A DNA stretch of 38,632 nucleotides from Myxococcota bacterium (GTDB lineage: Bacteria; Myxococcota_A; UBA796; UBA9615; JAKLKC01): contig JAKLKC010000057.1 of NCBI GenBank assembly GCA_023150875.1, positions 1,242-39,873 on the forward strand, read 5' to 3'. The notes under the pieces were generated by a model. That model worked only from the letters and a program-made list of their open reading frames with translations. It ran no database searches and was not told the DNA's origin. Each line of letters starts with the position of its first letter. The first letter of the stretch is position 1. Positions 3,682 through 37,196 of the stretch are shown one piece after another. A program made the position numbers and the translations under genes.

Positions 3682-5718
3682 TCAGTTCGCGTTGCCCGGG
3701 ACCACCACGATGATCTGGAGCTGGTCCAGGAGGGTCACGCCGTCGCCGATGACGTTCAGGTCCAGGTGGAAGAGCTGGTCCTCGGTGGTGGCGGCCATCA
3801 CGCCGGCGAAGGAGAGGTTGAAGGAGATGGAGGTGCCGGTGGGTACGTCGGGGTAGCCCTCCGCGGGGGAGATCCCGGTCACGAAGCCGTAGGAGTCGCC
3901 GGGGACCTCCAGGGTGACGTCGAAGACGCCGGTGGCGGCCAGGCTCGTGATGCCCTCCACCACCGAGCTGACCACGCCGACGTCGGTGCCGGTGAAGCCC
4001 AGGGGCTCCTCCGCCAGGCCGTCGCCGTCGAGGTCGGCGAAGGACTCGGTCTCGTAGAGGAGGTTCATGGCGCCGGGGAGGAAGTCGGCGTAGGCGTCCA
4101 CCTCGATGGCGATGAGCTTGGCGCCCGCGGCGTTGATGGCGTCGGCGGTGGCGGAGCCGCTCGCCGGGCTGGAGCAGACGGCCGGCGTGCCGTAGCCCTC
4201 CTCGGGGTCCCGCCACTCGTTGTCGCCCGCGATCACGATGATGGGCAGGCTGTAGGGGCGGAAGCCCGCGCCGCCGCCGTCGCCACCGTCGGGGGTGGTG
4301 GGGTCGTAGACCCCCGGCACCGCGCCGGCGAAGGCGTCGAAGGGGGAGGGGATGAAGGGCTTGACGTCGTCCTGGCTGTCGTAGGCGTCGTTGCAGTTCT
4401 GGTCGTAGCCCTCCCCGGTCACCGCCTGGTACACCGCCTCCATGGACGACTCGGGACCGTCGCTGCCCCCGGCCGCGCCGAGGCTCGACAGGGCCGCCTG
4501 GATCAGGCCCGTGTCCGTGGTCACCTGCTGCTCCAAGTAGAAGGGCAGGTCGGTCCCGGCGCCGAAGCCCTGGTCGTTGTAGTCCCGGAACTGGGTCACC
4601 GAGAAGGCGACGTTGGGGATCGAGGCGCTGACCTGCGAGACGATGTTGACGAAGTTCGACGACATCGCCGACACCGTCGAGCCCATGGAGCAGGTGGTGT
4701 CCAGCACGAACACCACGTCCGCCACGTTGATGTCGGTCGTGAACGTAAACTGCTCCTCCACGGTGGAGCGCTCCTCCACGATCACGTAGATCCCGTCCGG
4801 CCAGTCGTTGGGGTTGTTGGGGTTCGATCCGCCCACCATCTCGGCGCCGTCGGTGTAGCCGTCGCCGTCGGAGTCGGCGTTGTAGGGATCCGTCTCGTCG
4901 CCCCCGTTGCCCGGCACCCCATCCGAGCCCCGCAGCTCGTCGTAGTCGGGGAGCCCGTCCCCGTCGGCGTCGGGGTCGATGGCGTCGTGCAAGCCGTCGC
5001 CGTCCAGGTCCCGGGGGGGGCACCCGGCGCAGTCCAGGTGGGCCTCGTCCCGGTCCGAGATCCCGTCCCCGTCGGAGTCGTCGTCCAGGTAGTCCGGCGT
5101 GCCGTCGCCGTCGGTGTCCCGGGGCTCGGGGTCGAAGGCGCCGATCCCCGCCTCGTACACGTCGTCGATGCCGTCGCCGTCGGAGTCGGTGTCCATGTAG
5201 TCGGCCCGGCCGTCGTGGTCCGAGTCCCGGGCGGACGTCGGGTTGCCCCCGATCTCCACCACGTCCGTCAGGCCGTCGCCGTCGTTGTCCAGGTCCGCGG
5301 GGTCGTAGACGCCGTCGCCGTCGGTGTCGGTGGGGTGGTCCGGGTCCATGCCCGCCTCGACCCGGTCCGTCACCCCGTTGTTGTCGCTGTCGGTGTCCAG
5401 GAAGTCCGGCGTGCCGTCCTCGTCGCTGTCGAAGGGCAGCGTCAGCACGTCCTCGTCGCCGGCCTCGATCTGGTCGGGGATGTCGTCCCCGTCCGAGTCG
5501 GGGTCCTCGTAGTTCGGGGCGCCGTCGCCGTCGTTGTCGATGAGCCCCTCGTGGGCGTCGATGATCAGGTCGCCGTCGGTGTCCTCGTAGATCACCCCGT
5601 CCTGGTTGCCGATGCCGTCGTCGACGGGGTCCTGGGACTGGGTGCATCCCGCGGCGGCCAGGGCCAGGATCGCGGCGAGGGCGGGGCTGAGGCGGGGAGA
5701 CAGCGGGTTCGGGGACAT
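3682..5718 (-). CDS. Lipoprotein with thrombospondin type-3 repeats and a VWA domain
   Basis: The 678-residue product starts at ATG 5718 behind GGGAGGAACCC. Its signal peptide ends in a lipobox (LAAAGC, Cys25), so it should be lipid-anchored in the envelope. Residues about 43-290 are Asp-rich DxDGDG repeats of the thrombospondin type-3 kind, which bind calcium and often form rigid stalks. A von Willebrand factor A domain follows. Its metal-site motif is DTTCSMGS (from Asp340), where the usual third position Gly or Ser is Cys. An EF-hand-like DLDGDGL lies within the VWA part and a beta-rich tail closes the protein. The likely role is calcium-dependent adhesion or surface protein scaffolding. 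An open frame extends upstream to 6549 but overlaps the sensor kinase gene, and the ribosome site and signal peptide fix the start here. Confidence 0.9.
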   Translation of the reverse strand: MSPNPLSPRLSPALAAILALAAAGCTQSQDPVDDGIGNQDGVIYEDTDGDLIIDAHEGLIDNDGDGAPNYEDPDSDGDDIPDQIEAGDEDVLTLPFDSDEDGTPDFLDTDSDNNGVTDRVEAGMDPDHPTDTDGDGVYDPADLDNDGDGLTDVVEIGGNPTSARDSDHDGRADYMDTDSDGDGIDDVYEAGIGAFDPEPRDTDGDGTPDYLDDDSDGDGISDRDEAHLDCAGCPPRDLDGDGLHDAIDPDADGDGLPDYDELRGSDGVPGNGGDETDPYNADSDGDGYTDGAEMVGGSNPNNPNDWPDGIYVIVEERSTVEEQFTFTTDINVADVVFVLDTTCSMGSTVSAMSSNFVNIVSQVSASIPNVAFSVTQFRDYNDQGFGAGTDLPFYLEQQVTTDTGLIQAALSSLGAAGGSDGPESSMEAVYQAVTGEGYDQNCNDAYDSQDDVKPFIPSPFDAFAGAVPGVYDPTTPDGGDGGGAGFRPYSLPIIVIAGDNEWRDPEEGYGTPAVCSSPASGSATADAINAAGAKLIAIEVDAYADFLPGAMNLLYETESFADLDGDGLAEEPLGFTGTDVGVVSSVVEGITSLAATGVFDVTLEVPGDSYGFVTGISPAEGYPDVPTGTSISFNLSFAGVMAATTEDQLFHLDLNVIGDGVTLLDQLQIIVVVPGNAN

Positions 5719-5867
5719 GGGTTCCTCCCACGCGGGGGTGGACCGGCGTGGCTCCGCGGGCACGGTGGCGACAGATTGACGCGTTCCCTCGCCGTTGCCA
5801 AGCCCCAGGATGGCCGCGGCGCCAGCCGGGGGACCGCCCTCCGCGCCCCGGACGGGCTCCGGTCCCT

Positions 5868-8150
5868 TCAACTCCCCCGGGGAAGCGCCAAAGAACGCTC
5901 CAGGTCGGCGGGGTCCACCGGCTTGGTCAGGTGCTCGTCGAAGCCCACCTCGCGGGATCGCCGGCGGTCCTCCTCCTGGCCGTATCCCGAGACCGCCACC
6001 AGCTTCATCCCGGCGCAGGCGGGGTCCCGCCGCAGGGCGCGGGCGACGGCGTAGCCGTCCATCCCCGGCAGGCCGATGTCGCACAGCACCACGTCCGGGC
6101 GGAAGCGCCGGGCCGCCTCGACCCCCTCCGGACCCGTGTGGGCCACCTCCACCCGGTGGCCGTCCAGCTCCAGGAGGGTCCGGAGGGTGTAGGCCGCGTC
6201 CGCCTGGTCCTCCACCACCAGCACCCGCCGGGGGGGTGACGGCCCGGGGAGGGGCTCCTCCTCCGCCGCGGCCCGGGCCCGGGGCGCCTCGGCCAGCGGC
6301 AGTCCGAAGGTGAACTCCGCGCCCTTCCCCAGCCCCTCGCTGGACGCCCCCACCCAGCCCCCGTGCAGCTCCACCATCCCCTTCACCAGCGCCAGCCCGA
6401 GGCCCAGTCCCCCTCGGCTCCGGTCCAGGCTGCGGTCCGCCTGGGTGAAGGTGGTGAACACCTCGGGCAGCAGCGTCGACTCGATGCCGATCCCGGTGTC
6501 CCGGACCCCCACCCGCACCCGCCGCTCCCCCTCGTCCCTCCGGAGCCAAACGAGGATCCTCCCCCCCGGGTCCGTGAACTTGACGGCGTTGTGGACGAGG
6601 TTGTCCAGGACCTGGGCCAGGCGCGTGGGATCCCCCTCCACGAACGCCGGTTCCTCGGGGACCTCCACGTCCAGCTCGAGCCCCGCGTCCTCGATGGAGC
6701 GACGATGGTCCCCCACCGAGTCCCGAACCAGGGCCGCCAGGTCGAGGCGCCGCGTCTGGAGGCCGATCCGGCCCCGGGCCAGGCGGGTCACGTTGAGCAG
6801 GTCGGCGATCAGGCGGGCCTGGCGCTCCACCTGCCTCTCGATGGTCGCCGCGGTGGCCCGAAGCGCCGGATCGGCGCCGGCGCGACGGCGCAGCAGCTCG
6901 GCCGCGGTGCGGATCGGCGCCAGGGGGTTCCGGAGCTCGTGGGCGAGCATCGCCAGCAGCTCGTCCTTGCGCTGGTCGGCCAGGCGGACCTGGCGGTAGA
7001 GGCGGGCGTTGTCGATGGCCGTCGCCGCCCGGCGAGCCAGGTCCAGGGCCACTTCCAGGTCGGAGTCCTCGTACCTCCGGCCCGAGGAGGTGGTCCCGAA
7101 GAACGCCAGGCCGAGCCGCCGATCATGGGCCACCAGCGGCGCCACCATCGCCGAGCGAAGCCGCAGGCTCCGGAGCTGGGCGAGGTGGGACGCGTCCATC
7201 GCCATCCCGCGGAGATCGGCGTCGGTGACCTCGGCGAGCACCAGAGGGTCTTCCACGAGCCGGGCGGGGGGGAGCCCGGCCTCCCTGCGCCGGGTCAGGG
7301 GGATCCGCCGGATCATCTCCCTCAGTTGCGCCGCGACGGCGGGATCCGCGGCGGCCACCACGGTGTGGGTGGGGAAACCGCCGTCCTCGTACACCGCCAC
7401 CACGCAGGCGTCCGCCAGCCGCGGCACCGCCAGTCTCGTCACCCGCTCCACGCAGTCCTGGTAGTCCAGGGTCGAGGCCAGCTCCGCTCCGGCGTCCCCC
7501 AGGAAGCGCAGCGTGGCCTGGGCGCGCTTGAGGGCTGTGATGTCGATGTGGGACACCACCAGCCCCCCTCCGGCCCCCAGCGGCGTGGCGCGCAGCAGGT
7601 ACCACCCGTCCACCTCCGGCGATGGGCAGGCGTACTCCCGCTCCAGCTCCCCGCTCCGCCCGGCGAGCATCGACTCCAGCCCGGCGAGCACGGCCCTCGC
7701 GTCGTCCTCGCCGGGGCCCCGCGCCCGCCGGCAGACGTCCAGGTAGTCCACGCCGACGCCGCAGCGGGCCAGATCTCCGCCGTTCCGTAGCGCGAACTCG
7801 TTCCACGCGGTGTTCACCTCGACGATCCGCCCCCGGTGGTCCAAGACCGCGATGTGGGCGTCCAGGGAATGGAGCACGCTCCGCCCGAAGTCCTCATCGC
7901 CAACATGGACCTCGACGCGGCTCCCGCACCCGGGCGCCCCCGCGCGGGGGATCCTCCGCTCTCCCGAGCGCCTCCCGTCCCGGCGGATCCCCCCGGGGGC
8001 GAGGCCCGCGGCGCCCCGCTCCCCCCGCAGCGCCGTCCACGCCGTGCCGCCGGCCAGGAACACCGTAATCGAGAGCGCCGCAAGCAGCGCCCGGCCCAGG
8101 GCCCCATGCTCCCCTGCCCGAGGGTCCACGCGGGCCCCGTCCCCGCCCAT
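5868..8150 (-). CDS. Hybrid sensor histidine kinase (TM - PAS - GAF - HisKA - HATPase - REC)
   Basis: The 760-residue protein has one N-terminal membrane segment (about 18-40), a PAS domain (about 88-212, opening SLDAHIAVLDHRGRIVEVN), a GAF domain (about 225-382) and a HisKA dimerisation helix with the phospho-accepting His404 in AHELRNPL. The ATPase domain (about 505-630) has its N box (DNLVHNAVKF), DTGIGI and GLGLGLALVKG. A C-terminal receiver domain (about 650-760) has Asp691 in CDIGLPGMDG and the conserved Lys in TKPVD. It should autophosphorylate and pass phosphate internally; no DNA-binding partner is adjacent. The start at ATG 8150 has GCGGAGG just upstream. The open frame continues to 9008, but that part reads as Pro/Gly/Arg-rich shadow and overlaps plus-strand genes. 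A 149-bp gap separates it from the VWA gene. Confidence 0.92.
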   Translation of the reverse strand: MGGDGARVDPRAGEHGALGRALLAALSITVFLAGGTAWTALRGERGAAGLAPGGIRRDGRRSGERRIPRAGAPGCGSRVEVHVGDEDFGRSVLHSLDAHIAVLDHRGRIVEVNTAWNEFALRNGGDLARCGVGVDYLDVCRRARGPGEDDARAVLAGLESMLAGRSGELEREYACPSPEVDGWYLLRATPLGAGGGLVVSHIDITALKRAQATLRFLGDAGAELASTLDYQDCVERVTRLAVPRLADACVVAVYEDGGFPTHTVVAAADPAVAAQLREMIRRIPLTRRREAGLPPARLVEDPLVLAEVTDADLRGMAMDASHLAQLRSLRLRSAMVAPLVAHDRRLGLAFFGTTSSGRRYEDSDLEVALDLARRAATAIDNARLYRQVRLADQRKDELLAMLAHELRNPLAPIRTAAELLRRRAGADPALRATAATIERQVERQARLIADLLNVTRLARGRIGLQTRRLDLAALVRDSVGDHRRSIEDAGLELDVEVPEEPAFVEGDPTRLAQVLDNLVHNAVKFTDPGGRILVWLRRDEGERRVRVGVRDTGIGIESTLLPEVFTTFTQADRSLDRSRGGLGLGLALVKGMVELHGGWVGASSEGLGKGAEFTFGLPLAEAPRARAAAEEEPLPGPSPPRRVLVVEDQADAAYTLRTLLELDGHRVEVAHTGPEGVEAARRFRPDVVLCDIGLPGMDGYAVARALRRDPACAGMKLVAVSGYGQEEDRRRSREVGFDEHLTKPVDPADLERSLALPRGS

Positions 8151-8979: not shown

Positions 8980-10398
8980 GTGTCCCTCCCCGCGCCCCCG
9001 CGCCCCAAGGCCGTCCTGGCGGGGCTCCAGCTCCCCGGGACCTCCGACGAGGAGCATCGGGGCTCCCTCGCGGAGCTCGGCCGCCTCGTTCAGACTCTGG
9101 GCTACGAGGTGATCGGCACGGTGTCCCAGCGGCGGCACTCCCCCTCCGCCCACTCCATCCTCGGCGAGGGCAAGCTCAAGGAGCTGGCCCGCTTCACCGG
9201 CGGGACGGGGATCGTGGCGTCAAAGGTCCCGGGGACGAAGAAGAAGGGGGAGGACGGCGGCGGCGAGGAGGGCACCGACGGCGGGGCCGGAGGAGGGGAC
9301 GAGGACGGGGCGGACGCGGGCGGCGAAGGGGCGGTGCCCCCGGACGAGAGGGCCCAGGTGGTGGTCTTCGACATGGAGCTCACCCCCAACCAGCTCCGGA
9401 ACCTCGAGACCGCCACCGACGCCGAGGTGCTGGACCGCACCGGGGTGATCGTCGAGATCTTCCACCGCCACGCCCACACCCGCGAGGCCCGGGCCCAGGT
9501 GGAGATCGCCCGGCTGCGCTACGTCGCTCCGCGGCTCCGCATGACCCGGCGGCGCGCGGACCGCCAGGGGGGTGGGATCGGCGCCAAGGGGGTGGGCGAG
9601 ACGTCCCACGAGCTGGACCGCCGCCGGATCCGCGACCGGATCGCCGAGCTCACCCGGGAGCTGGAGGAGATCCACGGCGGCCAGCAGGGGCGGCGGGAGA
9701 GGAGGCGGGAGCAGGCGAAGGTGGCGCTGGTGGGCTACACCAACGCCGGGAAGTCGTCGCTGATGCGGGCCCTCACCGGCAGCGAGGTCCTGGTGGAGGA
9801 CAAGCTCTTCGCCACCCTGGACACCACCATCCGCGCCCTCCACCCCGAGACGGTGCCCCGGATCCTCGCCTCGGACACGGTCGGCTTCATCCGCAAGCTC
9901 CCCCACGACCTGGTGGCGTCGTTCCGCTCCACCCTGGACGAGGCCGCTGACGCCTCCCTCCTGCTGTTCGTGGTGGACGCCAGCGATCCCGACTTCCGGG
10001 CCCAGCTCCGGGTGACCCGGGAGGTCCTGGGCGAGATCGGGGCCCTCGACGCGCCCTCCCGGGTGGTGCTGAACAAGATGGACCGCGTGGACCCCGGGAC
10101 CGCGGCCGCGCTGGGGGAGGAGTTCCCGGACGCCTTCCCCATGTCCGCCAAGGACCCCGGGGACGTGGCGCGACTGCGGGGGTTCATCGTGGAGTTCTTC
10201 GAGAAGGACATGGCCGAGGTCGACCTCTTCGTGCCCTACACCGCCGGCCCCGTGGTGGGCGAGGTCCGCCGCACCATGAGGGTGCTGGCCGAGGACTACG
10301 GCGACCTGGGCACCACCTTCCGGGTGCGGGCCTCGCCCGAGGCGCTGGCGCGGATCGAGAGGCGGATCGGGGGCGCCGGGGAGGGGGGAGCGGCCTGA
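8980..10398 (+). CDS. hflX: GTPase HflX
   Basis: HflX is a ribosome-associated GTPase that rescues or splits stalled ribosomes. The 472-residue product has the HflX N-terminal domain, the charged linker (TRRRADRQ..GIGAKG.GE) and a G domain. The G-domain motifs are G1 GYTNAGKSS (about 251-259), G3 DTVGF, G4 NKMD and G5 SAK. The N-terminal domain is interrupted at about 72-124 by a Gly/Glu/Asp-rich low-complexity insert (with GEDGGGEEG and GGGDEDG) that makes it longer than the E. coli protein. GTG 8980 is chosen because GAGGA lies 7 nt upstream and the family N-terminus starts there; no ATG fits. Nothing suggests an operon with its neighbours. Confidence 0.95.
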   Translation: MSLPAPPRPKAVLAGLQLPGTSDEEHRGSLAELGRLVQTLGYEVIGTVSQRRHSPSAHSILGEGKLKELARFTGGTGIVASKVPGTKKKGEDGGGEEGTDGGAGGGDEDGADAGGEGAVPPDERAQVVVFDMELTPNQLRNLETATDAEVLDRTGVIVEIFHRHAHTREARAQVEIARLRYVAPRLRMTRRRADRQGGGIGAKGVGETSHELDRRRIRDRIAELTRELEEIHGGQQGRRERRREQAKVALVGYTNAGKSSLMRALTGSEVLVEDKLFATLDTTIRALHPETVPRILASDTVGFIRKLPHDLVASFRSTLDEAADASLLLFVVDASDPDFRAQLRVTREVLGEIGALDAPSRVVLNKMDRVDPGTAAALGEEFPDAFPMSAKDPGDVARLRGFIVEFFEKDMAEVDLFVPYTAGPVVGEVRRTMRVLAEDYGDLGTTFRVRASPEALARIERRIGGAGEGGAA

Positions 10399-16135: not shown

Positions 16136-17178
16136 TCGCTCACCGCCCCCTGGTAGCCGTCCACCACCAGGTAGTACACGTCGCCCGCCGAGACCGGGAA
16201 GGTCGCGCCGATGTCCCCGATGCCGAGGCAGGCAGCGGGATCGCAGGCGGCGCCGGTGCCGTCCAGCACCGCCAGGTCCAGGTCGGCGGAGAGGCCCGAG
16301 AGGGTGACCACCGCCGTGGCCGAGCGGTCGGGCAGGAAGCGGTAGGCGTACTCCGGGCCCGACTCGTCCCACGAGGAGCAGGGCCAGGAGTCGATGACGT
16401 CCGTGGACCCGGGGCCGTCGTTGGACCAGTCGTCGTACTGGTCGCAGGCGATCTCGATGTCCGGGGTGCACGCCGGGGCCGCGCAGGCGGGCTGCCCCTC
16501 GCAATCGGGATCGTCGCAGTCGGCCTGGCCGTCCCCGTCGTCGTCCAGGCCGTTCCCGCAGTCCTCGGGGGCGGTCTCGGCGCAGTCCGCCGCGAGGGTG
16601 AAGGCGCCCGAGGCGCCGCCCTCGCCCTCCACGATCACCCGGTAGGAGGCGCCCGCCTCCGCGTCGATCTCCAGCTCGGTGGAGCCCCCCGCGAGGCAGG
16701 TCTCGCCGGTGCAGGGGGAGGCGGCGGACAGCACGAAGAGGGAGAGGTCGGCGGCGGACGCCAGCCGGAAGGTGACCCGGGCCGCGGACGCGGCGTCGAA
16801 GGTGAAGCCCAGCTCCGGGCCGGAGGTGTCCGCGGCGGCGCAGCTCCAGGCGTCGACGGCGTCGGTGGCGAGGAACCCGTCCGTGGCGGCCTCGATGGCG
16901 TCCCCGCACCCCAGCGTGCCCGCCGACAGGCACTCCCCGGCGCATCCGGGGTGGAGGGCGCAGTCGTCGTCCAGGCAGTCCACGAGCCCGTCGCCGTCGT
17001 CGTCCACCCCGTCGTCGCAGGTCTCCGGCGGCGGGACGGTGTCGTCGTCCCCCGGGGCGGTGTCGTCGTCGGGAGAGGGGCCCCCGGGGCCCGGGCGATC
17101 CAGCGGTTCGAGGCCCGCGGCGCACCCGGAGAACGACGCCAGGGTCAGCGCCGCCGCCAGGACCGCGCCCCGCCTCAC
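16108..17178 (-). CDS. Lipoprotein with Asp/Cys repeats and PPC-like beta domains
   Basis: The 356-residue product has a lipoprotein signal (lipobox SFSGC, Cys19) and an acidic Pro/Asp linker. It then has two units of the same plan: a Cys-bounded acidic repeat (CDDGVDDDGDGLVDCLDDDC, later CGNGLDDDGDGQADCDDPDC) followed by a beta-sandwich of about 100 residues. The beta part reads like a bacterial pre-peptidase C-terminal domain (SADLDLAVLDGTG, then a YYLVVDGY strand). Such proteins are abundant on myxobacterial surfaces, with unknown partners. GTG 17178 overlaps the stop of the YqeY gene (GTGA); the signal peptide begins directly after it, which supports this start. The 3' end overlaps the desaturase tail by 28 bp. 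Confidence 0.85.
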   Translation of the reverse strand: MRRGAVLAAALTLASFSGCAAGLEPLDRPGPGGPSPDDDTAPGDDDTVPPPETCDDGVDDDGDGLVDCLDDDCALHPGCAGECLSAGTLGCGDAIEAATDGFLATDAVDAWSCAAADTSGPELGFTFDAASAARVTFRLASAADLSLFVLSAASPCTGETCLAGGSTELEIDAEAGASYRVIVEGEGGASGAFTLAADCAETAPEDCGNGLDDDGDGQADCDDPDCEGQPACAAPACTPDIEIACDQYDDWSNDGPGSTDVIDSWPCSSWDESGPEYAYRFLPDRSATAVVTLSGLSADLDLAVLDGTGAACDPAACLGIGDIGATFPVSAGDVYYLVVDGYQGAVSDYRLTVACD

Positions 17179-17597
17179 TTCAAGCCCAGCTCCGTCCCGA
17201 TGCGCCGGACCACCTCGGGGTCCACCTGGCCCTTGTACTGCTTCATCACCAGGCCCATGAACTGGCCGATGCCCCGGGCCTGGGCCGCCAGGGGCTCGAT
17301 GAGGGAGCGGGTCTGCTCCTCGCCCAGCCGGGACGGCAGGTAGGGGCGGAGCAGGTCCACCTCCACCTGGTATCGCTCGGCGATGGGGCCCGCGCCGATC
17401 TGGGCGATGGCCTTCTCGAGGGACTTCACGTAGCGCTCCACCACGTCCCTCTCCAGGTCCTCGGTCCAACCGGAGAAGCCCTCGGACTTCTCCTCCTCGG
17501 TGAACCGGGAGAGGATCCCGGTCAGCATCGCGCGCCGATCGGAGTCGCGGTTCCGCAGGGCCTCGATCGACAGGCGCTTGATCTCGTCGCGGATCAT
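17175..17597 (-). CDS. GatB/YqeY domain protein
   Basis: The 140-residue cytoplasmic protein matches the YqeY family, a free-standing version of the GatB C-terminal tail domain. It opens MIRDEIKRLSIEALRNRD, has the LRPYLPSRL segment, and closes with GQFMGLVMKQYKGQVDPEVV, close to the GatB motif. The family is thought to bind tRNA or act with amidotransferases, but its role is unproven. ATG 17597 follows AGGAGGTG at 5 nt. It is the first gene of a two-gene unit with the lipoprotein. TATCCT at 17643-17638 is a possible -10 box with a weak -35. Confidence 0.88.
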   Translation of the reverse strand: MIRDEIKRLSIEALRNRDSDRRAMLTGILSRFTEEEKSEGFSGWTEDLERDVVERYVKSLEKAIAQIGAGPIAERYQVEVDLLRPYLPSRLGEEQTRSLIEPLAAQARGIGQFMGLVMKQYKGQVDPEVVRRIGTELGLK

Positions 17598-17728
17598 CGC
17601 CCACCTCCTGGAAGATCGCCCGCCACGCGGGCAGGTGAGGATAGCCGGGGCGGGCTCCCTCCGCCAGGGTGGGGTTGCGGCCCGCGCGGCCTCGCCCCGC
17701 GGGGCCGGCTGTGGAAGAATGGCGCCGC

Positions 17729-18988: not shown

Positions 18989-19354
18989 ATGAAGAACCTG
19001 AACGCGGACGAACTGCTGGGCGCCATCGGACTGCAACGGCGGCAGGAGCCCCCCGACTACCTCGTCACCGCCCTGGGCCTCTTCGGCGCCGGCCTGGTGG
19101 TCGGCGCCGGACTCGGGATGCTCTTCGCCCCCAAGCCCGGGGCCGAGCTTCGGCGGGACATCGGCGGCAAGGTGGGCGACAACTTCCAGGCCCTCCAGGA
19201 CCAGGTCCAGAAGCTGGCCGAGAAGGTCCAGGGGCTGAGCTCGGGGGAGGGCCGGGTGCCGGTGACCCGTGGGGAGGGCGGCGCGCCTGCGGGGGCGCCT
19301 CCCCTGACCGGTCCCAACCCCGGCACGACGGGGGGGAACGTCCCCAAGGCGTGA
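18989..19354 (+). CDS. YtxH-like membrane protein
   Basis: The 121-residue product has a membrane helix (LFGAGLVVGAGLGMLFAPKP) followed at once by GAELRRDIGGKVGD, the YtxH family signature. An amphipathic helix (about 70-86) and a Gly/Pro-rich tail follow. YtxH proteins belong to general stress regulons in Bacillus; the mechanism is unknown. GCGAGGA lies before ATG 18989. It ends the cassette and meets the DUF2325 gene tail to tail with 21 bp between. Confidence 0.78.
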   Translation: MKNLNADELLGAIGLQRRQEPPDYLVTALGLFGAGLVVGAGLGMLFAPKPGAELRRDIGGKVGDNFQALQDQVQKLAEKVQGLSSGEGRVPVTRGEGGAPAGAPPLTGPNPGTTGGNVPKA

Positions 19355-19375
19355 GCGGCCGGGATCGTCGAGGGA

Positions 19376-20875
19376 TCAGATCGTCGAGTCCTCTTCGCGC
19401 CCCGAGCGGGCCTCCACGGCGCGGGTGGCGCGGCGGAGCATGCCGCCGATCCCGCGGTGGGCGACGAGGACCACCCGGGGATCGCCGAGGGAGGAGTACA
19501 GGGTCGACACCGCGTGGTCCAGGAGGGTCGCGCCCCAGACCAGGGTGAGGTCCGAGCCCTCGACCTGCTGCTTCGCCCGCTGGCGATCCGTCCGCACCGT
19601 GCCGTCGACGAAGCGCGCGTCGAGCTGGCCGCCGATGACCTGCTGCAGCTCCGCGAAGTAGGCGGGGGAGCCGCCCACGACCACCAGCCGCTGGAGCCGG
19701 CCCCGCCGGCATGCGTCCACGAAGTCCCGCGCCGCCTTGCGGGTCGCCGAGCCGCCGCAGATCTCGCAGCGGGACGGGTCCGACACCTCGATGGCGGTGC
19801 GCCCGGATGGGGCCGGACACACCCCGCAGGTCAGCGCCGTCTTCTGCCGGAGCGCCCGGGCGAACCCCTGGGGGTCCGTCACCGCCAGGGCGTCCATCGT
19901 CGTCTCGATGCGGGCGTCGATGAGCAGGGCGTCCATGGCCGCCCGCACCTCGTCGTGGTCCCGCAGCCCCCTCTCGCCCAGCACCTCCGCCAGGCCCTTC
20001 GGGCGGGCGGGTACCCGGGCCTCGGCGCTCGTTCCCCCCTCCGCCCGGGCGAGCGCCGCCTTCTCCCGGGCGCGGGCCGCCGCGGCCCGGGCCTCGGCCT
20101 CGTAGAAGCGGGCCTCCGCGTCCTTGATCTGCTCCTCGGCGCGGGCCCGGACCCGGCCCTCCTGTTCCCGCGCCTCCTGGAGCGACTCCAGCCGGGCACG
20201 GAGGTCGTCCCCCTCGCGCTCCGCCTCCTCCGCCCGGGCGTGGGCGTCCGCGACGGCCGCCTGCACCCGCTCCGCCAGGCCCGCCTCCAGTGCGCCCAGG
20301 CGGGCGCGGGCCTCGGCGAGGGCGCTCCGGTGGCGGGCCAGCTCCGCCTCGACGGCCTCCAGGGCCTCCTCGGCGCGGCGCCTCGCCACCAGGGCCGCCC
20401 CCAGGGAGTCCCGCAGCGCCGCCTCGGTGGCCTGGGGAGGCGGGACGGACGGTGGCGGTGGCCCGCCGGAAGCGGGGGGCGCGGGGGCGGCGGGTCCGCC
20501 CGCGGGGGTCGGCCGGGCGGCGAGGTAGCCCTCCAGGACCTTGGCGAACGGGGCGTCCGAGAACCGGGACGCCCACTGCTCCGGCCGCACCTGGAACTCC
20601 GGGGCGAGACCCTCGGCGGCACCCGGGGGGCGGGATCCCTTCCCCCGGTGGGCCGGCCCTTCCCCCGCCTCCGGCGCCGGGGGTACCGGCCGCCCCGCCC
20701 TGCCGCCGCCCTCCGCCCGCACCGCCGCGCAGACCTGCTCCACCACCTCCGGGGGGAGCATGTCTTCGGGCGAGCGGTAGCGGCCATGCCCCATGCGGGC
20801 GAGCCTCGCCAGGATCGCCTCGGGCGAGCGGTCGAGCCGGGTGGCGAGCTTGCGGACGCGTTCCTTCTGCGACAT
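19376..20875 (-). CDS. Uncharacterised protein: IF2-N-like domain, coiled coil, zinc ribbon, DUF2325
   Basis: The 499-residue cytoplasmic protein has four parts. Residues 3-52 (KERVRKLATRLDRSPEAIL and on) look like an IF-2 N-terminal or related helical nucleic-acid-binding module. A Pro/Ala/Gly linker (55-150) precedes a long heptad-rich coiled coil (about 152-280). A candidate zinc site follows, with CGVC at 350-353 and CEIC at 370-373. The C-terminal 395-480 reads as DUF2325, a Rossmann-like domain: RLVVVGGSP, then RFVDGTVRTDRQ, SDLTLVWGATLLDHAVS and VVLVAHRGIGGMLRR. In other bacteria DUF2325 occurs in small proteins of unknown role. ATG 20875 follows GGAG. The palindrome at 21023-21208 lies just upstream and may be in its leader. 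Confidence 0.75.
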   Translation of the reverse strand: MSQKERVRKLATRLDRSPEAILARLARMGHGRYRSPEDMLPPEVVEQVCAAVRAEGGGRAGRPVPPAPEAGEGPAHRGKGSRPPGAAEGLAPEFQVRPEQWASRFSDAPFAKVLEGYLAARPTPAGGPAAPAPPASGGPPPPSVPPPQATEAALRDSLGAALVARRRAEEALEAVEAELARHRSALAEARARLGALEAGLAERVQAAVADAHARAEEAEREGDDLRARLESLQEAREQEGRVRARAEEQIKDAEARFYEAEARAAAARAREKAALARAEGGTSAEARVPARPKGLAEVLGERGLRDHDEVRAAMDALLIDARIETTMDALAVTDPQGFARALRQKTALTCGVCPAPSGRTAIEVSDPSRCEICGGSATRKAARDFVDACRRGRLQRLVVVGGSPAYFAELQQVIGGQLDARFVDGTVRTDRQRAKQQVEGSDLTLVWGATLLDHAVSTLYSSLGDPRVVLVAHRGIGGMLRRATRAVEARSGREEDSTI

Positions 20876-31523: not shown

Positions 31524-32665
31524 GCTCCCCTCCCTTCCGCCTCTTCCAGGATCCGGGCCATCGCCCGCACCGCGCCCGCCTCGCCGTGGCCCTCGGCGAC
31601 CGCCCGGGCCCGCCGCGCCAGGTCCTGCCGGTCGGGCACGGCCCGCAGCTCCGCCACCGCCCGGGCGAAGCCCGCGGCGTCCTCGGGGTCCCGGACCACC
31701 CGGGTGGGTCCTTGGTCGTCCATCAGTTCGGCGGCTCCGTTTCGCAGCGAGGTGACGATCGGCACGCCGCTGGCCAGCGCCTCCAGGCAGGCGTTGGCGA
31801 AGGGGTCGTAGCGCGTCGGGAGGAGCAGGACGTCGGCGGCGGCATAGAACCGCTCCACCCGCTTCGCCGGCCCCGCGAACACGACATGGGATCGGATGCC
31901 CAGTTCCCGGGCGAGTTGCATGTAACCCTGGGGCCGCGGCTCGCTTCCCACCACCACCAGCTTCACGTCGGGGTCCGCCAGCAGGGCCAGGGCCCGCATC
32001 GCCGTGTCGAGGCCCTTGCGCTCCCAGCCGTTGCCGACGAAGAGCACCATGTCCTCGTGGGGCTCGATGCCACACTCCCGCCGGGTCTCGGCGAAGAAGG
32101 TCTCGCGGTGGCGCGGGTGGAAGCGGTCCAGGTCCACCCCGTTCCAGACCACCCGCAGGCGGGGAGCGACCTCGGGGTGGGCGGCGGCCAGCTCCGCCGC
32201 GGCCAGGCGGCTCACCGCCACCACGCGGGACGCGCCGGCGGGCCCGAGCTGGCGGCGCTCCACCCAGCGGTAGAAGGCGTGCAGCGGGCTCAGGCGGATC
32301 GACCACCGCCGGAGGCCGGCGCTGCCGGCGACGAGCTGCTCCCAGTAGGCGCGGTGGCAGCCCCCGCCGGCCCGGTACACGTCGCAGGGCAGGGTGCGCC
32401 CGAGGGAGACCACCCGGTCGAACTCCTCCCGCCGGACCCGCCCGGCGGCCCAGAAGAGGGACAGGGCCTTCAACAGGGTCCCGCCCCGGAGCACCCGCAG
32501 GCGGTGGAAGGTGACCCCCCGAGTCCCCGACAGGGTGGGGTCCAGGGAGGCGCAGAAGACGTGCACGTCGTGGCCCAGGGAGGCGAGGCCCCGGGCGAGC
32601 CCGACCAGGTGCCGCTCCGTGCCCCCCATCAGGTCGAACCGCTTGTGGACGAGGGCGATCCTCAC
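31520..32665 (-). CDS. Glycosyltransferase family 4 (WaaG-like LPS core transferase)
   Basis: The 381-residue enzyme has a GT-B fold pattern. The N-terminal GGTERHLVGLARGLASLGHDVHV is close to that of WaaG, the LPS core glucosyltransferase. The nucleotide-sugar half has LFVGNGWERKGLDTAM, ADVLLLPTRYDPFANACLEA and a late E/G motif. It should add a sugar from a nucleotide donor to lipid A core or a similar acceptor at the inner membrane. GTG 32665 overlaps the previous stop (GTGA); no other start is better. It sits between a GT2 enzyme and the PBP in one transcription unit. Confidence 0.88.
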   Translation of the reverse strand: MRIALVHKRFDLMGGTERHLVGLARGLASLGHDVHVFCASLDPTLSGTRGVTFHRLRVLRGGTLLKALSLFWAAGRVRREEFDRVVSLGRTLPCDVYRAGGGCHRAYWEQLVAGSAGLRRWSIRLSPLHAFYRWVERRQLGPAGASRVVAVSRLAAAELAAAHPEVAPRLRVVWNGVDLDRFHPRHRETFFAETRRECGIEPHEDMVLFVGNGWERKGLDTAMRALALLADPDVKLVVVGSEPRPQGYMQLARELGIRSHVVFAGPAKRVERFYAAADVLLLPTRYDPFANACLEALASGVPIVTSLRNGAAELMDDQGPTRVVRDPEDAAGFARAVAELRAVPDRQDLARRARAVAEGHGEAGAVRAMARILEEAEGRGA

Positions 32666-33489
32666 CCGACCCCTTCCCCCCGCGGACCGCGGCCCCCGGC
32701 CGTCGCCTTCCGGGGCGCCGCCTCCACCCCCTCGGAGAGGGCCCGGAGACGGGCGAAGCGCAGCAGGACGTAGGTTGCCCCCAGGCCGCAGGCCACCACT
32801 CCCCTCCAGCCGTCCAGGAAGCCCCGCCCCGCCAGAAGGCGCCAGGCGAAGAAGGCCGGGGGGCGGAGCAGCAGGTCCCCGAGCCCCGCCCGCCTGCCCC
32901 GGGCGTGGGCGCTCCGGGCCCAGTCCCGGGAGTGGCGGTCGATCCGCGCCAGGTGGTCCGACAGGTCGCGGTAGGAGAAGTGGAGCAGCTCGCCCCGCAG
33001 GTGCCCCACCGGTCCCGCCGCCACCAGTCGGTCGTGGGGGTCGTCCCCCTCCCACCGGGCCGCCCCCACCAGGAAGACGCGGGCGCGGCGATCGGGCCAG
33101 AAGCCGCAGCCCCGCATGGGGCGGCCGAGGTAGACCATGCGCCTGGGAACCGTGTAGGCGACGGGGGACGCCTCCCCCCCGCCCGACCGGGCCAGCACGG
33201 CCTTCAGCTCCGCCGCCAACTCCGGGCTCACCCTCTCGTCGGCATCCAGGCCCAGCACCCAGCGGTGCCGAGCCAGGGCGGCGGCCCGGTTCTTCTGCGC
33301 CGCGTAGCCCTCCCAGGGGTGGTCCACCACCCTCGCCCCCCGGGCGGCGGCGACCTCCCGCGTGCGGTCCCGGGAGCCCCCGTCCACCACCAGCACCTCG
33401 TCGGCCCACCGCGCCGAGTCGATGGCCTCGCCGATGCGGTCCTCCTCGTCCTGGGCGACGATGGCGACGGTGATGCCGTTGGGGAGCAA
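32662..33489 (-). CDS. Glycosyltransferase family 2 (WaaE/KdtX-like)
   Basis: The 275-residue enzyme has a GT-A fold: ITVAIVAQDEEDRIGEAI at the start, then VVDGGSRDRT and GLDADERVSPELA (DxD region). This matches WaaE/KdtX-type LPS core glycosyltransferases. A C-terminal membrane-near helix follows. The start is TTG 33489, because an in-frame TAG lies 12 codons upstream and no ATG or GTG fits before the conserved strand. The ribosome site is weak. It heads the operon with the WaaG-like and PBP genes. A degraded copy of its first ~40 codons lies at 35590-35705. Confidence 0.87.
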   Translation of the reverse strand: MLPNGITVAIVAQDEEDRIGEAIDSARWADEVLVVDGGSRDRTREVAAARGARVVDHPWEGYAAQKNRAAALARHRWVLGLDADERVSPELAAELKAVLARSGGGEASPVAYTVPRRMVYLGRPMRGCGFWPDRRARVFLVGAARWEGDDPHDRLVAAGPVGHLRGELLHFSYRDLSDHLARIDRHSRDWARSAHARGRRAGLGDLLLRPPAFFAWRLLAGRGFLDGWRGVVACGLGATYVLLRFARLRALSEGVEAAPRKATAGGRGPRGEGVG

Positions 33490-33640
33490 TCGGGGGTCCG
33501 GGGCTCGCGGGGGGCGCCGATTCTACCGGCGCGGGCGGTGGCGCGCACCCGCGGGCGCACCGGGCGGCGCGGCCCCCACCGCCGGGGATGCCGGAAGGCG
33601 TGCTCCGCGACCGCGGTGGCCGTCCTCCGCCCCCCGCGCG
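33367..33640. repeat. Degenerate direct repeat, copy A (GT2 start, divergent promoter, decayed DUF1015 start)
   Basis: This segment aligns by eye with 35590-35911 in the same orientation. Shared landmarks include CTCGTCGGCCCACCGCGCCG, GTCCGGGGCTC, ACCGGCGCGGGCGGTGGCGC and CTCCGCGACCGCG, followed by TGGCCGTC(C/T)TCCG. Copy A keeps the functional GT2 reading frame and its TAGAAT box. It has lost about 60-70 bp holding the DUF1015 promoter, and the DUF1015 ATG has become GTG. The gap 33490-33826 otherwise holds only the promoter at 33701. Confidence 0.85.
33520..33548 (-). promoter_or_regulatory. Candidate promoter of the glycosyltransferase - PBP operon
   Basis: On the minus strand GTGCGC (33548-33543; three of six), 17 bp, then TAGAAT (33525-33520; five of six). 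The transcript would start about 24 nt before the TTG. In the second copy of this region (35590-35911) the matching -10 is destroyed (reads TCGCAC). Confidence 0.5.
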
Positions 33641-33700
33641 CCGGAGGAGTCCATCACCGCTCTCCCGGGCCAGGTGTCGCCGCCCCCTCGGGGGGGCGCG

Positions 33701-33729
33701 TTGAGGCCCGGGTTCCGGGGCGATATCAT
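33701..33729 (+). promoter_or_regulatory. Promoter of the MORN-repeat protein gene
   Basis: TTGAGG (33701-33706), exactly 17 bp, TATCAT (33724-33729). Four of six bases match at the -35 and four or more at the -10, and position fits a leader of about 90 nt. It lies outside the duplicated segment. Confidence 0.6.
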
Positions 33730-33826
33730 CGACGGGCCGGCGGGGGCCCCCACGTCCCCTCCGGCCCCCGGGCGGGGGTCCCGTCCCCGGAACGCGCGAT
33801 CCCCAGCGCCACCCCCTGCGGACCCG

Positions 33827-35482
33827 ATGCACTCCCCACTCCGGGCGATGCTCCCGCTCTCCCTGCTCCTCCTGGGTTCCCCGCCCGCGACCGCGGAGGA
33901 TCCGCAGGACCCTCCCCCCGCCATCACCGAGGTCTACCGCGTGCCAGACGCCGAGGCGCCGAGCGGGGAGGTCCGCCTCGTCCAGGTCGGGTCCGAGGAG
34001 GACCCCCGGTCCACGCTCCTCGTCGAGACCGGCGCGGGCCTGCAGGTCGTCGAGGTCGGCCTGGACGGAGCGCACGCGACGCCGCTCGGCCTCACCACGT
34101 CGCCCCGCCCGGGGAAGGGGCTGCGGCGGGTCGACGACCTGTACTGGTTCGGGGGCTCCCTGGCTGCCGTCGTCCGCGGGAGTGGCCAGGTCTACAGCCG
34201 CTCCGCGGGCGAGCCGGCGTCCCCCCCGCTCGCCCTGGGGCTGCGGGGACTGGAGCAGGTGTTCTTCCTGGACCAGTACGTGATCGGGGTCCGGGGCACC
34301 CGCATCGCCAGCCTGGACCTGGCGGACGGGAGCACCGCGCGCCGGGACGAGCCCGCGTTGAAGGAGGCCAACAGGCTCTGCGTGGACCCCACCCACGGCT
34401 TCGCCATCTACGGGGTCGGCACGCTCTACCTGGACCCGGGCTCCCTCGCCCCGGCCGAGGACAACGGCCTAGGGCGCTTCTGGCAGGAGGACTGTTGGCC
34501 GAGGCCCTCGCAGTTCCGCCGGGAGCTCCCCTCCACCCTCACCTCCGGCGGCCTCGTCACAGGGGAGGTCCAGGAGGACCACCTGGAGGTGGCGCTGAGG
34601 TCCGGGGACGAGACGACGCCGCTGTGGCGCCTTCCCGGCGTCGTCGCCGCCCAGCGGATCGGGCCGCACCTCCTCGTGGTACTGGAGGGGGGGAGGGCCG
34701 TCGGCTGGTGGCGCGACTTCGCCCGGGCGGCGGCGCGTCGCGCCCGGCCCTTGGGGACGTGCGCCGCCGGGGACTGCGTGGACGGCGTCGGCGCCCTGAC
34801 CCTGAAGTCGGGCGGCGCCCTCGTCGGCGCGTTCCAGGGCGGTCTCCTTCACGGCCTGGCGGCGCGGTTGGAGGCCGGGGGCAGGATGAGCGACATGGGG
34901 GTGTGGGAGGAGGGGCGCTACCTCACCTCTCTCCCGGACGGGCTCCTCGTCGACGTGGTGATGCCGGGGCCGGACGGCATCGAGGTGCGGGGCGGCATCG
35001 ACCGCTACGGCAACCGATCGGGCGCCTGGCTGACCTCCCGCAGCGGGTCCGTCGAGGAGGCGGAGGTCTACCGCGAGGGCGGCCGCCTCGGCACCTGCGC
35101 CAGCCCCGACCACTGCCAGGGCCCGCGCGGCGAGATCCGCGGCGCCGAGTGGCGCTACGAGGGCGCGCTCCGGCACGGCCTCCCCCACGGCCAGGGAAGG
35201 TGGACGTGGACCGCGTCGGACCGCCGCTTCGAGGGGACCTTCGAGGAGGGCTTTCCAGTGAGCGGCGAGGACTGGGGGCTGGGGCGCCTCCTCTTCAAGG
35301 GTTCCGTCCGGAAGGACTTCACCCACGACTCCGGCCGCACGCCCCTGCCCGACGGCAGCGGGACCTGGATAGGCCCCCACGACGAGCGGGGCCTCCCGCA
35401 CGGTCGAGGGAGCTTCGAGAACCGCCAGGGCAGGGTCCTGACCGCCGTGGCCGAGCACGGCGCGATCTCGCGCCCGGACTGA
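33827..35482 (+). CDS. Exported protein with C-terminal MORN-type repeats
   Basis: The 551-residue protein has a signal peptide (1-23, LLLLGSPPATA then EDPQD), so it is exported. Residues about 30-250 are beta-rich with propeller-like strands (FFLDQYVIGVRGTRIASLDL). Two CxxxxC clusters follow (CAAGDC, later CASPDHC). The C-terminal part has MORN-type units, such as YEGALRHGLPHGQGRW, FEGTFEEG and GTWIGPHDERGLPHGRG. MORN repeats mediate membrane or protein contact. I do not recognise the N-terminal domain or a function. No strong ribosome site is seen before ATG 33827. It has its own promoter and sits between two degraded copies of one intergenic region, so it looks like an insertion. Confidence 0.8.
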   Translation: MHSPLRAMLPLSLLLLGSPPATAEDPQDPPPAITEVYRVPDAEAPSGEVRLVQVGSEEDPRSTLLVETGAGLQVVEVGLDGAHATPLGLTTSPRPGKGLRRVDDLYWFGGSLAAVVRGSGQVYSRSAGEPASPPLALGLRGLEQVFFLDQYVIGVRGTRIASLDLADGSTARRDEPALKEANRLCVDPTHGFAIYGVGTLYLDPGSLAPAEDNGLGRFWQEDCWPRPSQFRRELPSTLTSGGLVTGEVQEDHLEVALRSGDETTPLWRLPGVVAAQRIGPHLLVVLEGGRAVGWWRDFARAAARRARPLGTCAAGDCVDGVGALTLKSGGALVGAFQGGLLHGLAARLEAGGRMSDMGVWEEGRYLTSLPDGLLVDVVMPGPDGIEVRGGIDRYGNRSGAWLTSRSGSVEEAEVYREGGRLGTCASPDHCQGPRGEIRGAEWRYEGALRHGLPHGQGRWTWTASDRRFEGTFEEGFPVSGEDWGLGRLLFKGSVRKDFTHDSGRTPLPDGSGTWIGPHDERGLPHGRGSFENRQGRVLTAVAEHGAISRPD

Positions 35483-35589
35483 GCCCACCGCGGTCCCTCC
35501 CGGGGAAGCCCCGACCGTCTCCGCCACCGACCCGCCCCCCGAAGCCCGCCTGACCGCCCTCCCCGAGGGCCGCCTGGCCGTGCGCCTCG

Positions 35590-35911
35590 AGACCCGGGTG
35601 CCACCCGCGCCTCGTCGGCCCACCGCGCCGAGTCGATGCCGCCCCCGCGGTCCTCCACGGCCTGAGCGACGACGGCCACGGTGGTGCCGCTCGGGAGCCA
35701 TCGGGTGTCCGGGGCTCCCGGGGGGCGCGGGTGCGACCGGCGCGGGCGGTGGCGCGCCCGCGCCCGTGCGCCCGGAGGGGCGCTCCCTCGCTTCCGGCGG
35801 GACGCCCGGGGGCGGTTTGGCCCCGCCCCGCGGGAGGTCTACAATACGGTCCCCCCCGCCGGGGGGACCGAAGGAGCGCTCCGCGACCGCGATGGCCGTC
35901 TTCCGTCCCTT
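35590..35911. repeat. Degenerate direct repeat, copy B (decayed GT2 start, divergent promoter, DUF1015 start)
   Basis: Read leftwards from 35703, this copy encodes a decayed GT2 N-terminus (TVAVVAQAVEDRGGGIDSARW against TVAIVAQDEEDRIGEAIDSARW in the real gene), then diverges after about 40 codons. Its GT2 start is TGG instead of TTG and its GT2 -10 box is gone. Rightwards it keeps the TACAAT promoter and ATG of the DUF1015 gene. The gap 35483-35891 holds no other gene. Confidence 0.85.
35817..35845 (+). promoter_or_regulatory. Promoter of the DUF1015 - HAD operon
   Basis: TTGGCC (35817-35822), exactly 17 bp, then TACAAT (35840-35845; five of six consensus bases). A transcript would start near 35852, giving a leader of about 40 nt. 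The element is missing from copy A of the duplication. Confidence 0.65.
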
Positions 35912-37196
35912 GCGCGCCCTGAGATATTGCAGCGACCTCAAGGGGGAACTGCCCTTCCTCATCTCTCCTCCCGGGGAGGGACCCCATCCCCCCGACGAGG
36001 GACTGGAGGGGGTCCATCCCCTCGCCGCGCTCCAGCTCACCCGCGGCCGGTACGGCCCCGAGGCCCGGGAGGACGAGCCCCCCTTCACCCACGCCGCCCG
36101 ACTCCTCCATGCGTGGAAGCAGGAGGGGATCCTGGGGAGGGATCCGCGGCCGGGCTTCTACCTGTACGAGCAGGTCTGGGATCCGGGCACGGGGCCCGTC
36201 ACCCGCAGGGGGCTCGTGGGCCTCCTGCGCCTCGAGGACTTCGCTCCCGGCGGATCCGTCCATCCCCACGAGCGCACCCTGGCCCACGCCCGGGAGGACC
36301 TGGTCCAGCACCTCTCCGCCACCCAGGCCCACCTGAGCCTGGTGATGGGCCTGGTGGCCGACGCCCGGGGCGAGGTGGCGGCGCTCCTGGGGCGCGGGGC
36401 CGAGGCGTCCCCCCTCGTCGAGGTCCGGGACGGCGACGGGATCCTGAACCGCCTCTCCGTCGCCTGCTCCAACGCCTACGTGGAGTCCGTCGTCCGGGCG
36501 ATGGCCGAGGAGCACGTGGTGCTCGCCGACGGCCACCACCGCTACGAGGTGGCCCTGGCGTACCGGGACCAGGTCCGGGCCCGGCCCGAGGTGCGGCGGC
36601 ACCAGGAGCTGCCCTCGGACTACGTGATGGCGCTGATCGTGCCCGACGGGGATCCCGGCCTGGTGATCCTGCCCACCCACCGGGTCTTCCGCCGCCTGCC
36701 CGAGGAGAAGGTCTCGGCGCTCCACCGCGGCCTCGACGAGTCGTTCGAGCGCGTCCCCCTGACCGACGTGGCCGAGGCGACCCGCTTCCTCCACCCCGGC
36801 GAGCCCGGCGAGCGGTTCGTGCTGGTGTTGCCGGACCGGCTGGAGGGGGCGGTGCTGCGGGAAGGGTCTCCCGCGGCCCGGGCAGTCAAGGGTTTGCCGG
36901 CCCCCCTGCGGGACGTCGAGGTCGCCGTGCTCCGGGACGTGGTCTTCCGGGGGATCATGGGGATCGGCCCCGAGGACTTCCCGCCGGAACAGCACGTGAG
37001 CTACGTCAACGACGCCCGGACGGCGGTGGCGCTGGTCCAGGACGCGGGGCAGCAGATCGGCTTCCTGGTGCGGGCCGCACGGCCCGAGCAGGTCACCGCG
37101 GTCGCCCTGGCGGGGGAGGTCATGCCGCCCAAGTCCACCAACTTCTTCCCGAAGCCGGTCAAGGGCCTTCTCATCAACTCCCTGCGGTCGTTCTGA
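35892..37196 (+). CDS. DUF1015 family protein
   Basis: The 434-residue cytoplasmic protein has the DUF1015 hallmarks. It starts MAVFRPLRALRYC, has FYLYEQ, then VHPHERTL, the signature VLADGHHRYEVALAYRDQ (about 209-226) and a final MPPKSTNFFPKPVKGLL. The family is widespread and uncharacterised; in many bacteria it is encoded near serine biosynthesis genes, which are not seen here. GAAGGAG lies rather far (about 15 nt) before ATG 35892. The HAD gene follows after 16 bp, so the two are probably one operon. Confidence 0.93.
   Translation: MAVFRPLRALRYCSDLKGELPFLISPPGEGPHPPDEGLEGVHPLAALQLTRGRYGPEAREDEPPFTHAARLLHAWKQEGILGRDPRPGFYLYEQVWDPGTGPVTRRGLVGLLRLEDFAPGGSVHPHERTLAHAREDLVQHLSATQAHLSLVMGLVADARGEVAALLGRGAEASPLVEVRDGDGILNRLSVACSNAYVESVVRAMAEEHVVLADGHHRYEVALAYRDQVRARPEVRRHQELPSDYVMALIVPDGDPGLVILPTHRVFRRLPEEKVSALHRGLDESFERVPLTDVAEATRFLHPGEPGERFVLVLPDRLEGAVLREGSPAARAVKGLPAPLRDVEVAVLRDVVFRGIMGIGPEDFPPEQHVSYVNDARTAVALVQDAGQQIGFLVRAARPEQVTAVALAGEVMPPKSTNFFPKPVKGLLINSLRSF

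What the first reader, a model, noticed from the sequence alone, without database searches (positions are those of the whole stretch)
33367..35911. Duplicated divergent promoter with reciprocal loss, flanking a MORN-repeat gene
Segments 33367-33640 and 35590-35911 are degenerate direct repeats. Each contains the start of the GT2 gene, the shared intergenic region and the start of the DUF1015 gene. Copy A keeps the GT2 frame and TAGAAT box but lost the DUF1015 promoter and ATG. Copy B keeps the DUF1015 TACAAT promoter and ATG but lost the GT2 -10 box and all but ~40 codons. The simplest history is an ancestral GT2 / DUF1015 head-to-head pair, split by insertion of the MORN gene with duplication of the target, then complementary decay.
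Basis: seen in the sequence. Interest (0 to 1): 0.62.

Follow-up and report, generated by a model that had tools for sequence, protein, structure and literature searches.

The report
Gene insertion with long target duplication
A gene for a secreted MORN-repeat protein sits between two worn copies of the start region shared by its two neighbour genes, as if it had landed there and duplicated about 250-320 bases of the landing site, and about a third of one family of toxin genes in the same bacterium sit between repeats of the same kind.

Summary
33387-33642 and 35601-35918 are gapped direct repeats (local score 267; best of 500 dinucleotide shuffles 67). Copy A carries the live GT2 start and a dead DUF1015 start (ATG to GTG; ~66-bp promoter stretch absent). 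Copy B carries the live DUF1015 promoter and ATG and a dead GT2 start (TTG to TGG, -10 lost, frame broken). Substitutions are polarised: on the GT2 side B moved AT to GC (14:2), on the DUF1015 side A did (7:2; p=0.002), so reciprocal decay is supported. No relative shows the ancestral pair: GT2 and DUF1015 lie on different contigs in the same-order relatives, and the MORN protein was found in none of 70 other genomes of its class. The new evidence is internal. In 1.6 Mb of this genome and at its PIN-domain toxin loci, small cassettes without recombinase genes are flanked by direct repeats of 42-1670 bp, one copy often a true gene end and the other a relic: 8 of 27 testable PIN loci against 3 of 232 control genes. 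One Uma2 cassette between divergent genes mirrors the MORN locus. Best reading: insertion with long target duplication, known from Helicobacter restriction-modification genes. The joining mechanism is unproven.

The parts
32662..33489 (-). GT2 glycosyltransferase gene (TTG start at 33489), left neighbour; 5' end lies in copy A
   Evidence: Pfam Glycos_transf_2 E 3.4e-16; ORF
33387..33642 (.). Repeat copy A: first ~34 codons of GT2, its -10 box TAGAAT (33525-33520, minus), the shared intergenic region without ~66 bp, and a dead DUF1015 start (ATG changed to GTG)
33616..33642 (+). Relic of the first 9 codons of DUF1015 in copy A (VAVLRPPRA)
   Evidence: relatives read MPLLRPLRALRYG or close to it; all 5 differences from B are GC in A, AT in B
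33643..35600 (.). Inserted segment, 1958 bp, no recombinase gene recognised; GC 75.8% against 74.5% for the window
   Evidence: defined by the repeat ends
33701..33729 (+). Promoter-like site for the MORN gene (TTGAGG-17-TATCAT) inside the insert
   Evidence: consensus match only
33827..35482 (+). MORN-repeat protein gene, 551 aa, N-terminal signal-peptide-like segment
   Evidence: Pfam MORN 24.7 bits, cut-off 22.5; coding model
35483..35600 (+). Tail of the insert with a coding-like stretch (TDPPPEARLTALPEGRLAVRLETRV), origin unknown; weak, non-significant likeness to Y2/IS91 transposases
35601..35918 (.). Repeat copy B: dead GT2 start (TTG to TGG, -10 lost, 3-bp deletion), full intergenic region, live DUF1015 promoter and start
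35817..35845 (+). DUF1015 promoter-like site TTGGCC-17-TACAAT, within the ~66 bp missing from copy A
35892..37196 (+). DUF1015 gene (ATG 35892), right neighbour
   Evidence: Pfam DUF1015 E 1.3e-56

Best explanation
A ~2-kb segment carrying the MORN gene with a promoter-like site of its own inserted into the shared start region of a divergent GT2/DUF1015 pair, and ~250-320 bp of that target was duplicated in the process (insertion with long target duplication). Each gene kept one working copy of its promoter and start. In the other copy the unused half was free to drift, lost its -10 box, start codon and frame, and moved towards the high-GC mutational equilibrium. Shown: the repeats, the asymmetric decay and the lack of any recognised recombinase in the insert. 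Shown in the same genome: the same layout around toxin-antitoxin and Uma2 cassettes. Inferred: that insertion and duplication were one event, and that the joining was illegitimate (staggered-break repair, template switching or integration of a circle with little homology), since no shared insert-end sequence was seen.
For: Repeat score 267 against shuffle maximum 67. Polarised decay 14:2 against 2:7, p=0.002; no codon-position-3 excess in the relic; relatives match A in GT2 and B in DUF1015. Parallels in the same genome: PIN toxin at rlmB/larB with 181-bp repeats at 89.5%; FitA/PIN pair 87 bp, 77%; PIN 72 bp, 90%; Uma2 between a divergent kinase pair 171 bp, 86%; MazE/PIN pair with 95-bp repeats at 97% and a 756-bp insert that starts 3 bp from the toxin gene's end; PIN with 1670-bp repeats at 99.5%. 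PIN loci 8/27 against 3/232 controls at 55 bits or more, p=7e-7. Literature: some restriction-modification systems insert with long, variable target duplications of order 100 bp (PMC3874152; PMC3031569).
Against: No empty site: the window's genome is alone in its family here, and same-order relatives do not keep GT2 beside DUF1015. The MORN gene is neither a toxin-antitoxin nor a restriction gene, so its insertion may have had another cause. One search counted 11 of 30 PIN loci, but three of those hits are overlap artefacts at contig ends and were removed. At one PIN locus (L233) the left copy lies inside a gene that reads on, so it does not fit a simple insertion.
Confidence: 0.68

Rival explanations
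1. Tandem duplication and random loss: a longer tandem duplication ran from within GT2 through DUF1015 to the MORN gene, then first-copy DUF1015 and second-copy MORN were deleted, which moved MORN without any insertion.
For: It gives the same final layout. The genome has other gene-fragment relics near intact genes (L054, L233). A coding-like fragment of unknown origin abuts copy B.
Against: It needs a duplication plus two large deletions that leave exactly the promoter region. No further MORN or DUF1015 remnants were seen in the area. The toxin-antitoxin parallels are tight, with inserts of 0.7-1 kb around one operon, which insertion explains more simply.
Confidence: 0.2
2. Campbell-type integration: a circular molecule that already carried the MORN gene and a diverged copy of the GT2/DUF1015 start region integrated by one homologous crossover, so the 20% divergence predates the event.
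For: It explains a long direct repeat in one known step and gives divergence without age (established knowledge of homologous integration).
Against: Differences in the GT2 relic are not mainly synonymous (2/9/4 by codon position), so B decayed without selection and is not a working donor copy. The same layout recurs at unrelated target genes, so each circle would need a different chromosomal segment.
Confidence: 0.1
3. Chance similarity of GC-rich sequence or shared promoter motifs rather than common descent.
For: The window is about 75% GC and short spurious repeats are common.
Against: Score 267 against a maximum of 67 in shuffles and 63 in real window pairs; the homology spans two gene starts in the same order.
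Confidence: 0.01

Closest known systems
Insertion with long target duplication of restriction-modification genes (Nobusato et al. 2000; Furuta et al. 2010, both known here through the citing papers PMC3874152 and PMC3031569)
   Same: Segment without a recognised recombinase, flanked by long direct repeats of variable length made of host sequence.
   Different: Cargo here is a MORN gene, and elsewhere in the genome PIN toxins and Uma2; the host is an uncultured high-GC lineage; no empty-site genome is available.
Tandem duplication-random loss (gene-order change, well known in mitochondrial genomes)
   Same: Complementary loss in two direct copies.
   Different: A new gene lies between the copies, and no second MORN gene or lost DUF1015 body remains.
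Transposed Arabidopsis genes with flanking direct repeats (PMC2869330)
   Same: Non-transposon genes flanked by direct repeats of genic sequence.
   Different: A eukaryote; the survey counted repeats from 15-30 bp upwards and could compare with an empty orthologous site.

Membership tests
Insertion with long target duplication | Insert flanked by direct repeats much longer than transposon duplications | tested here: met
   256/318-bp repeats, score 267 against shuffle max 67
Insertion with long target duplication | Repeats are host target sequence, not insert sequence | tested here: met
   Repeats are the start regions of GT2 and DUF1015
Insertion with long target duplication | Empty site with one target copy in a close relative | tested here: inconclusive
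   No genome of the same family held; GT2 and DUF1015 on different contigs in the same-order relatives
Insertion with long target duplication | Variable target length at several loci of one genome | tested here: met
   42-1670 bp at other loci
Insertion with long target duplication | Insert is a restriction-modification unit in the described cases | tested here: not met
   Here a MORN gene; other loci in the genome carry toxin-antitoxin, Uma2 or methylase genes. This describes the known cases rather than defining the process.
Classical transposon or insertion sequence | Transposase and terminal inverted repeats with short target duplication | tested here: not met
   No transposase found in the insert; no shared insert ends seen at eight other loci; duplication is 256-318 bp
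Tandem duplication-random loss | Remnants of the deleted copies, or an ancestral order with MORN outside the pair | tested here: inconclusive
   No remnants in 32800-36500; MORN absent from class relatives

The most novel reading that the evidence does not exclude
In this lineage small gene cassettes (PIN toxin-antitoxin pairs, Uma2, a methylase/toxin group and the MORN gene) move without a recombinase of their own by a host-driven process that duplicates tens to more than a thousand bases of target, so that each insertion leaves both neighbours with an intact end; this would be a general route by which toxin-antitoxin modules settle in chromosomes.
Probability: 0.4. Interest if true: 0.7.

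Novelty: new variant of a known kind. Interest (0 to 1): 0.5.

Why it matters
How toxin-antitoxin modules enter chromosomes without a recombinase is an open question. Here about 30% of testable PIN loci in one genome carry the footprint, with repeat identities from 99.5% down to 77%. A long target duplication also explains why such insertions are tolerated: both neighbours can keep a complete end. The MORN locus shows a late stage, in which each duplicate has decayed on the unused side, so the footprint can be ordered in time and searched for in other genomes.

Tried and rejected
Empty site in relatives: 57 relatives searched for GT2, DUF1015 and MORN, then 71 genomes of the class including the window's own for MORN; the pair is not conserved. 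The GTDB 220 contig scan gave one DUF1015 relative only. Y2/IS91 transposase origin of 35530-35600: best of 2000 shuffles, but 7 of 61,200 genome pieces score as well, Pfam finds nothing at E 10, and the family was chosen after seeing the hit; two earlier profiles failed because the proteins were badly extracted. MORN on plasmids: no match. rlmB-larB empty site: larB found in relatives but rlmB not beside it within the loci held. The L082 repeats proved to be a diversity-generating retroelement, not an insertion. The first codon-position count was off by one base and was redone.

Full report
OBSERVATION. The window has GT2 (minus, 32662-33489), a MORN-repeat gene (33827-35482) and DUF1015 (35892-37196). 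A local alignment of 33340-33700 with 35545-35980 scores 267; 500 dinucleotide-preserving shuffles reach at most 67 and 970 random window pairs 63. The homologous part is 33387-33642 and 35601-35918, with a weak extension to the left. Both copies contain, in the same order, the 5' end of GT2, the intergenic region and the 5' end of DUF1015.

DECAY. In copy B the GT2 start TTG reads TGG, a 3-bp deletion and a 10-bp gap follow, and TAGAAT is gone. In copy A the DUF1015 ATG reads GTG and homology ends after nine codons; a ~66-bp stretch with the TTGGCC-17-TACAAT promoter is absent. Homologues agree with A in GT2 (for example the N/D-E and V-x-D motifs) and mostly with B over the DUF1015 start (MPLLRPLRALRYG in same-order relatives). 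In a 75% GC genome unselected sequence can be expected to drift to GC (inference). On the GT2 side 14 differences have AT in A and GC in B, 2 the reverse; on the DUF1015 side 2 and 7 (Fisher p=0.002). Differences in the GT2 relic fall 2/9/4 on codon positions 1/2/3, unlike the pattern expected if both copies were under selection.

OUTGROUPS. The genome is the only one of its family in the set. DUF1015 (39-44% identity in the same order) and GT2 lie on different contigs in the six same-order relatives. The MORN protein matched only the window's own genome among 71 of the class, where it also hits a weaker paralogue. The ancestral arrangement therefore remains inferred.

THE SAME FOOTPRINT ELSEWHERE IN THE GENOME. 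I scanned 1.6 Mb of the same genome for isolated repeats 300-6000 bp apart: 35 direct against 4 inverted pairs. Many of the direct pairs are duplicated coding sequence, but in a set of them one copy is at a true gene end and the other is a relic, and a small cassette lies between. Examples: a PIN toxin between 181-bp repeats of the rlmB-like 3' end (L078 8893-9071 and 9930-10106); a FitA/PIN pair (L057); a PIN gene with 72-bp repeats of the preceding gene's 3' end (L074); a Uma2 gene between two copies of a kinase gene's start region, with a gene on the other strand beyond, the closest analogue of the MORN locus (L145 16256-16425 and 17155-17318). The names rlmB and larB are my reading of the sequences, not a database call.

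TEST. PIN family members were located across the genome (30 hits) and flanks of 1500 bp compared. Direct repeats of 45 bits or more occur at 11 of 30, but three of these are artefacts of overlapping flanks at contig ends, leaving 8 of 27; inverted repeats occur at none. Of 233 control genes of similar size 6 have direct repeats; one is itself a PIN gene and two belong to one retroelement. Fisher p is 9e-6 against 6/233. At a common threshold of 55 bits, with the PIN gene taken out of the controls, it is 8/27 against 3/232, p=7e-7. With 2500-bp flanks a further PIN locus has 1670-bp repeats at 99.5%. At L232 a MazE/PIN operon is a 756-bp insert between 95-bp repeats at 97% whose edge is 3 bp from the toxin gene's end. 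By eye the insert ends at eight loci share no motif. One PIN locus (L233) does not fit a simple insertion.

MECHANISM. The footprint matches insertion with long target duplication, described for restriction-modification genes (PMC3874152 section 7; PMC3031569; the primary papers were not held). How the joints form is not known from these data. Staggered-break repair, template switching and circle integration all predict the layout; the lack of common insert ends argues against a transposase. The MORN gene is unusual cargo and its move might be unrelated to the toxin modules. Tandem duplication and loss remains a rival (0.2).

LIMITS. No close relative, one genome, a home-made gene caller. The PIN pattern was recognised before it was tested on all PIN loci: of the eight positive loci, four (L204, L207, L208, L220) lie in the region where the pattern was first seen and four (L198, L202, L203, L205) are new; of the latter L205 is the PIN locus also held as L233, which is ambiguous.

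Noticed in passing
L082 (G000:C93:1-20000) 6610-6751, 6859-7845, 7955-8098, 9149-9291: Diversity-generating retroelement: reverse transcriptase, template repeat and two variable repeats at the 3' ends of two genes, one a TIR-NACHT-FGE protein; 11 of 12 and 19 of 20 differences fall at template T (adenine on the other strand).
   Followed up: yes
L243 (G000:C94:48500-57000) 882-2551 and 5028-6697: 1670-bp direct repeat at 99.5% around a PIN gene, duplicating a whole gene that looks like a CoA-transferase and the 3' end of a dehydrogenase-like gene; looks like a recent insertion.
   Followed up: partly
window 35530-35600: Coding-like fragment TDPPPEARLTALPEGRLAVRLETRV next to copy B, of unknown origin.
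   Followed up: partly
L044/L043 (G000:C125:73908-74642): Second, longer MORN protein with a PDZ-like upstream region and a C-terminal extension, sharing cysteine-containing motifs (C-x-x-GDC-x-DG-x-G) with the window protein.
   Followed up: no
L054 (G000:C125:38001-58000) 16929-17674 and 19231-19639: Partly deleted duplicate of the upstream region and 5' part of an AlbA_2 gene just downstream of the same gene.
   Followed up: no
G000:C27:580-1242 (L098, L104): The only Y2 (IS91-type) transposase match in this genome, in two stretches of an open frame.
   Followed up: no
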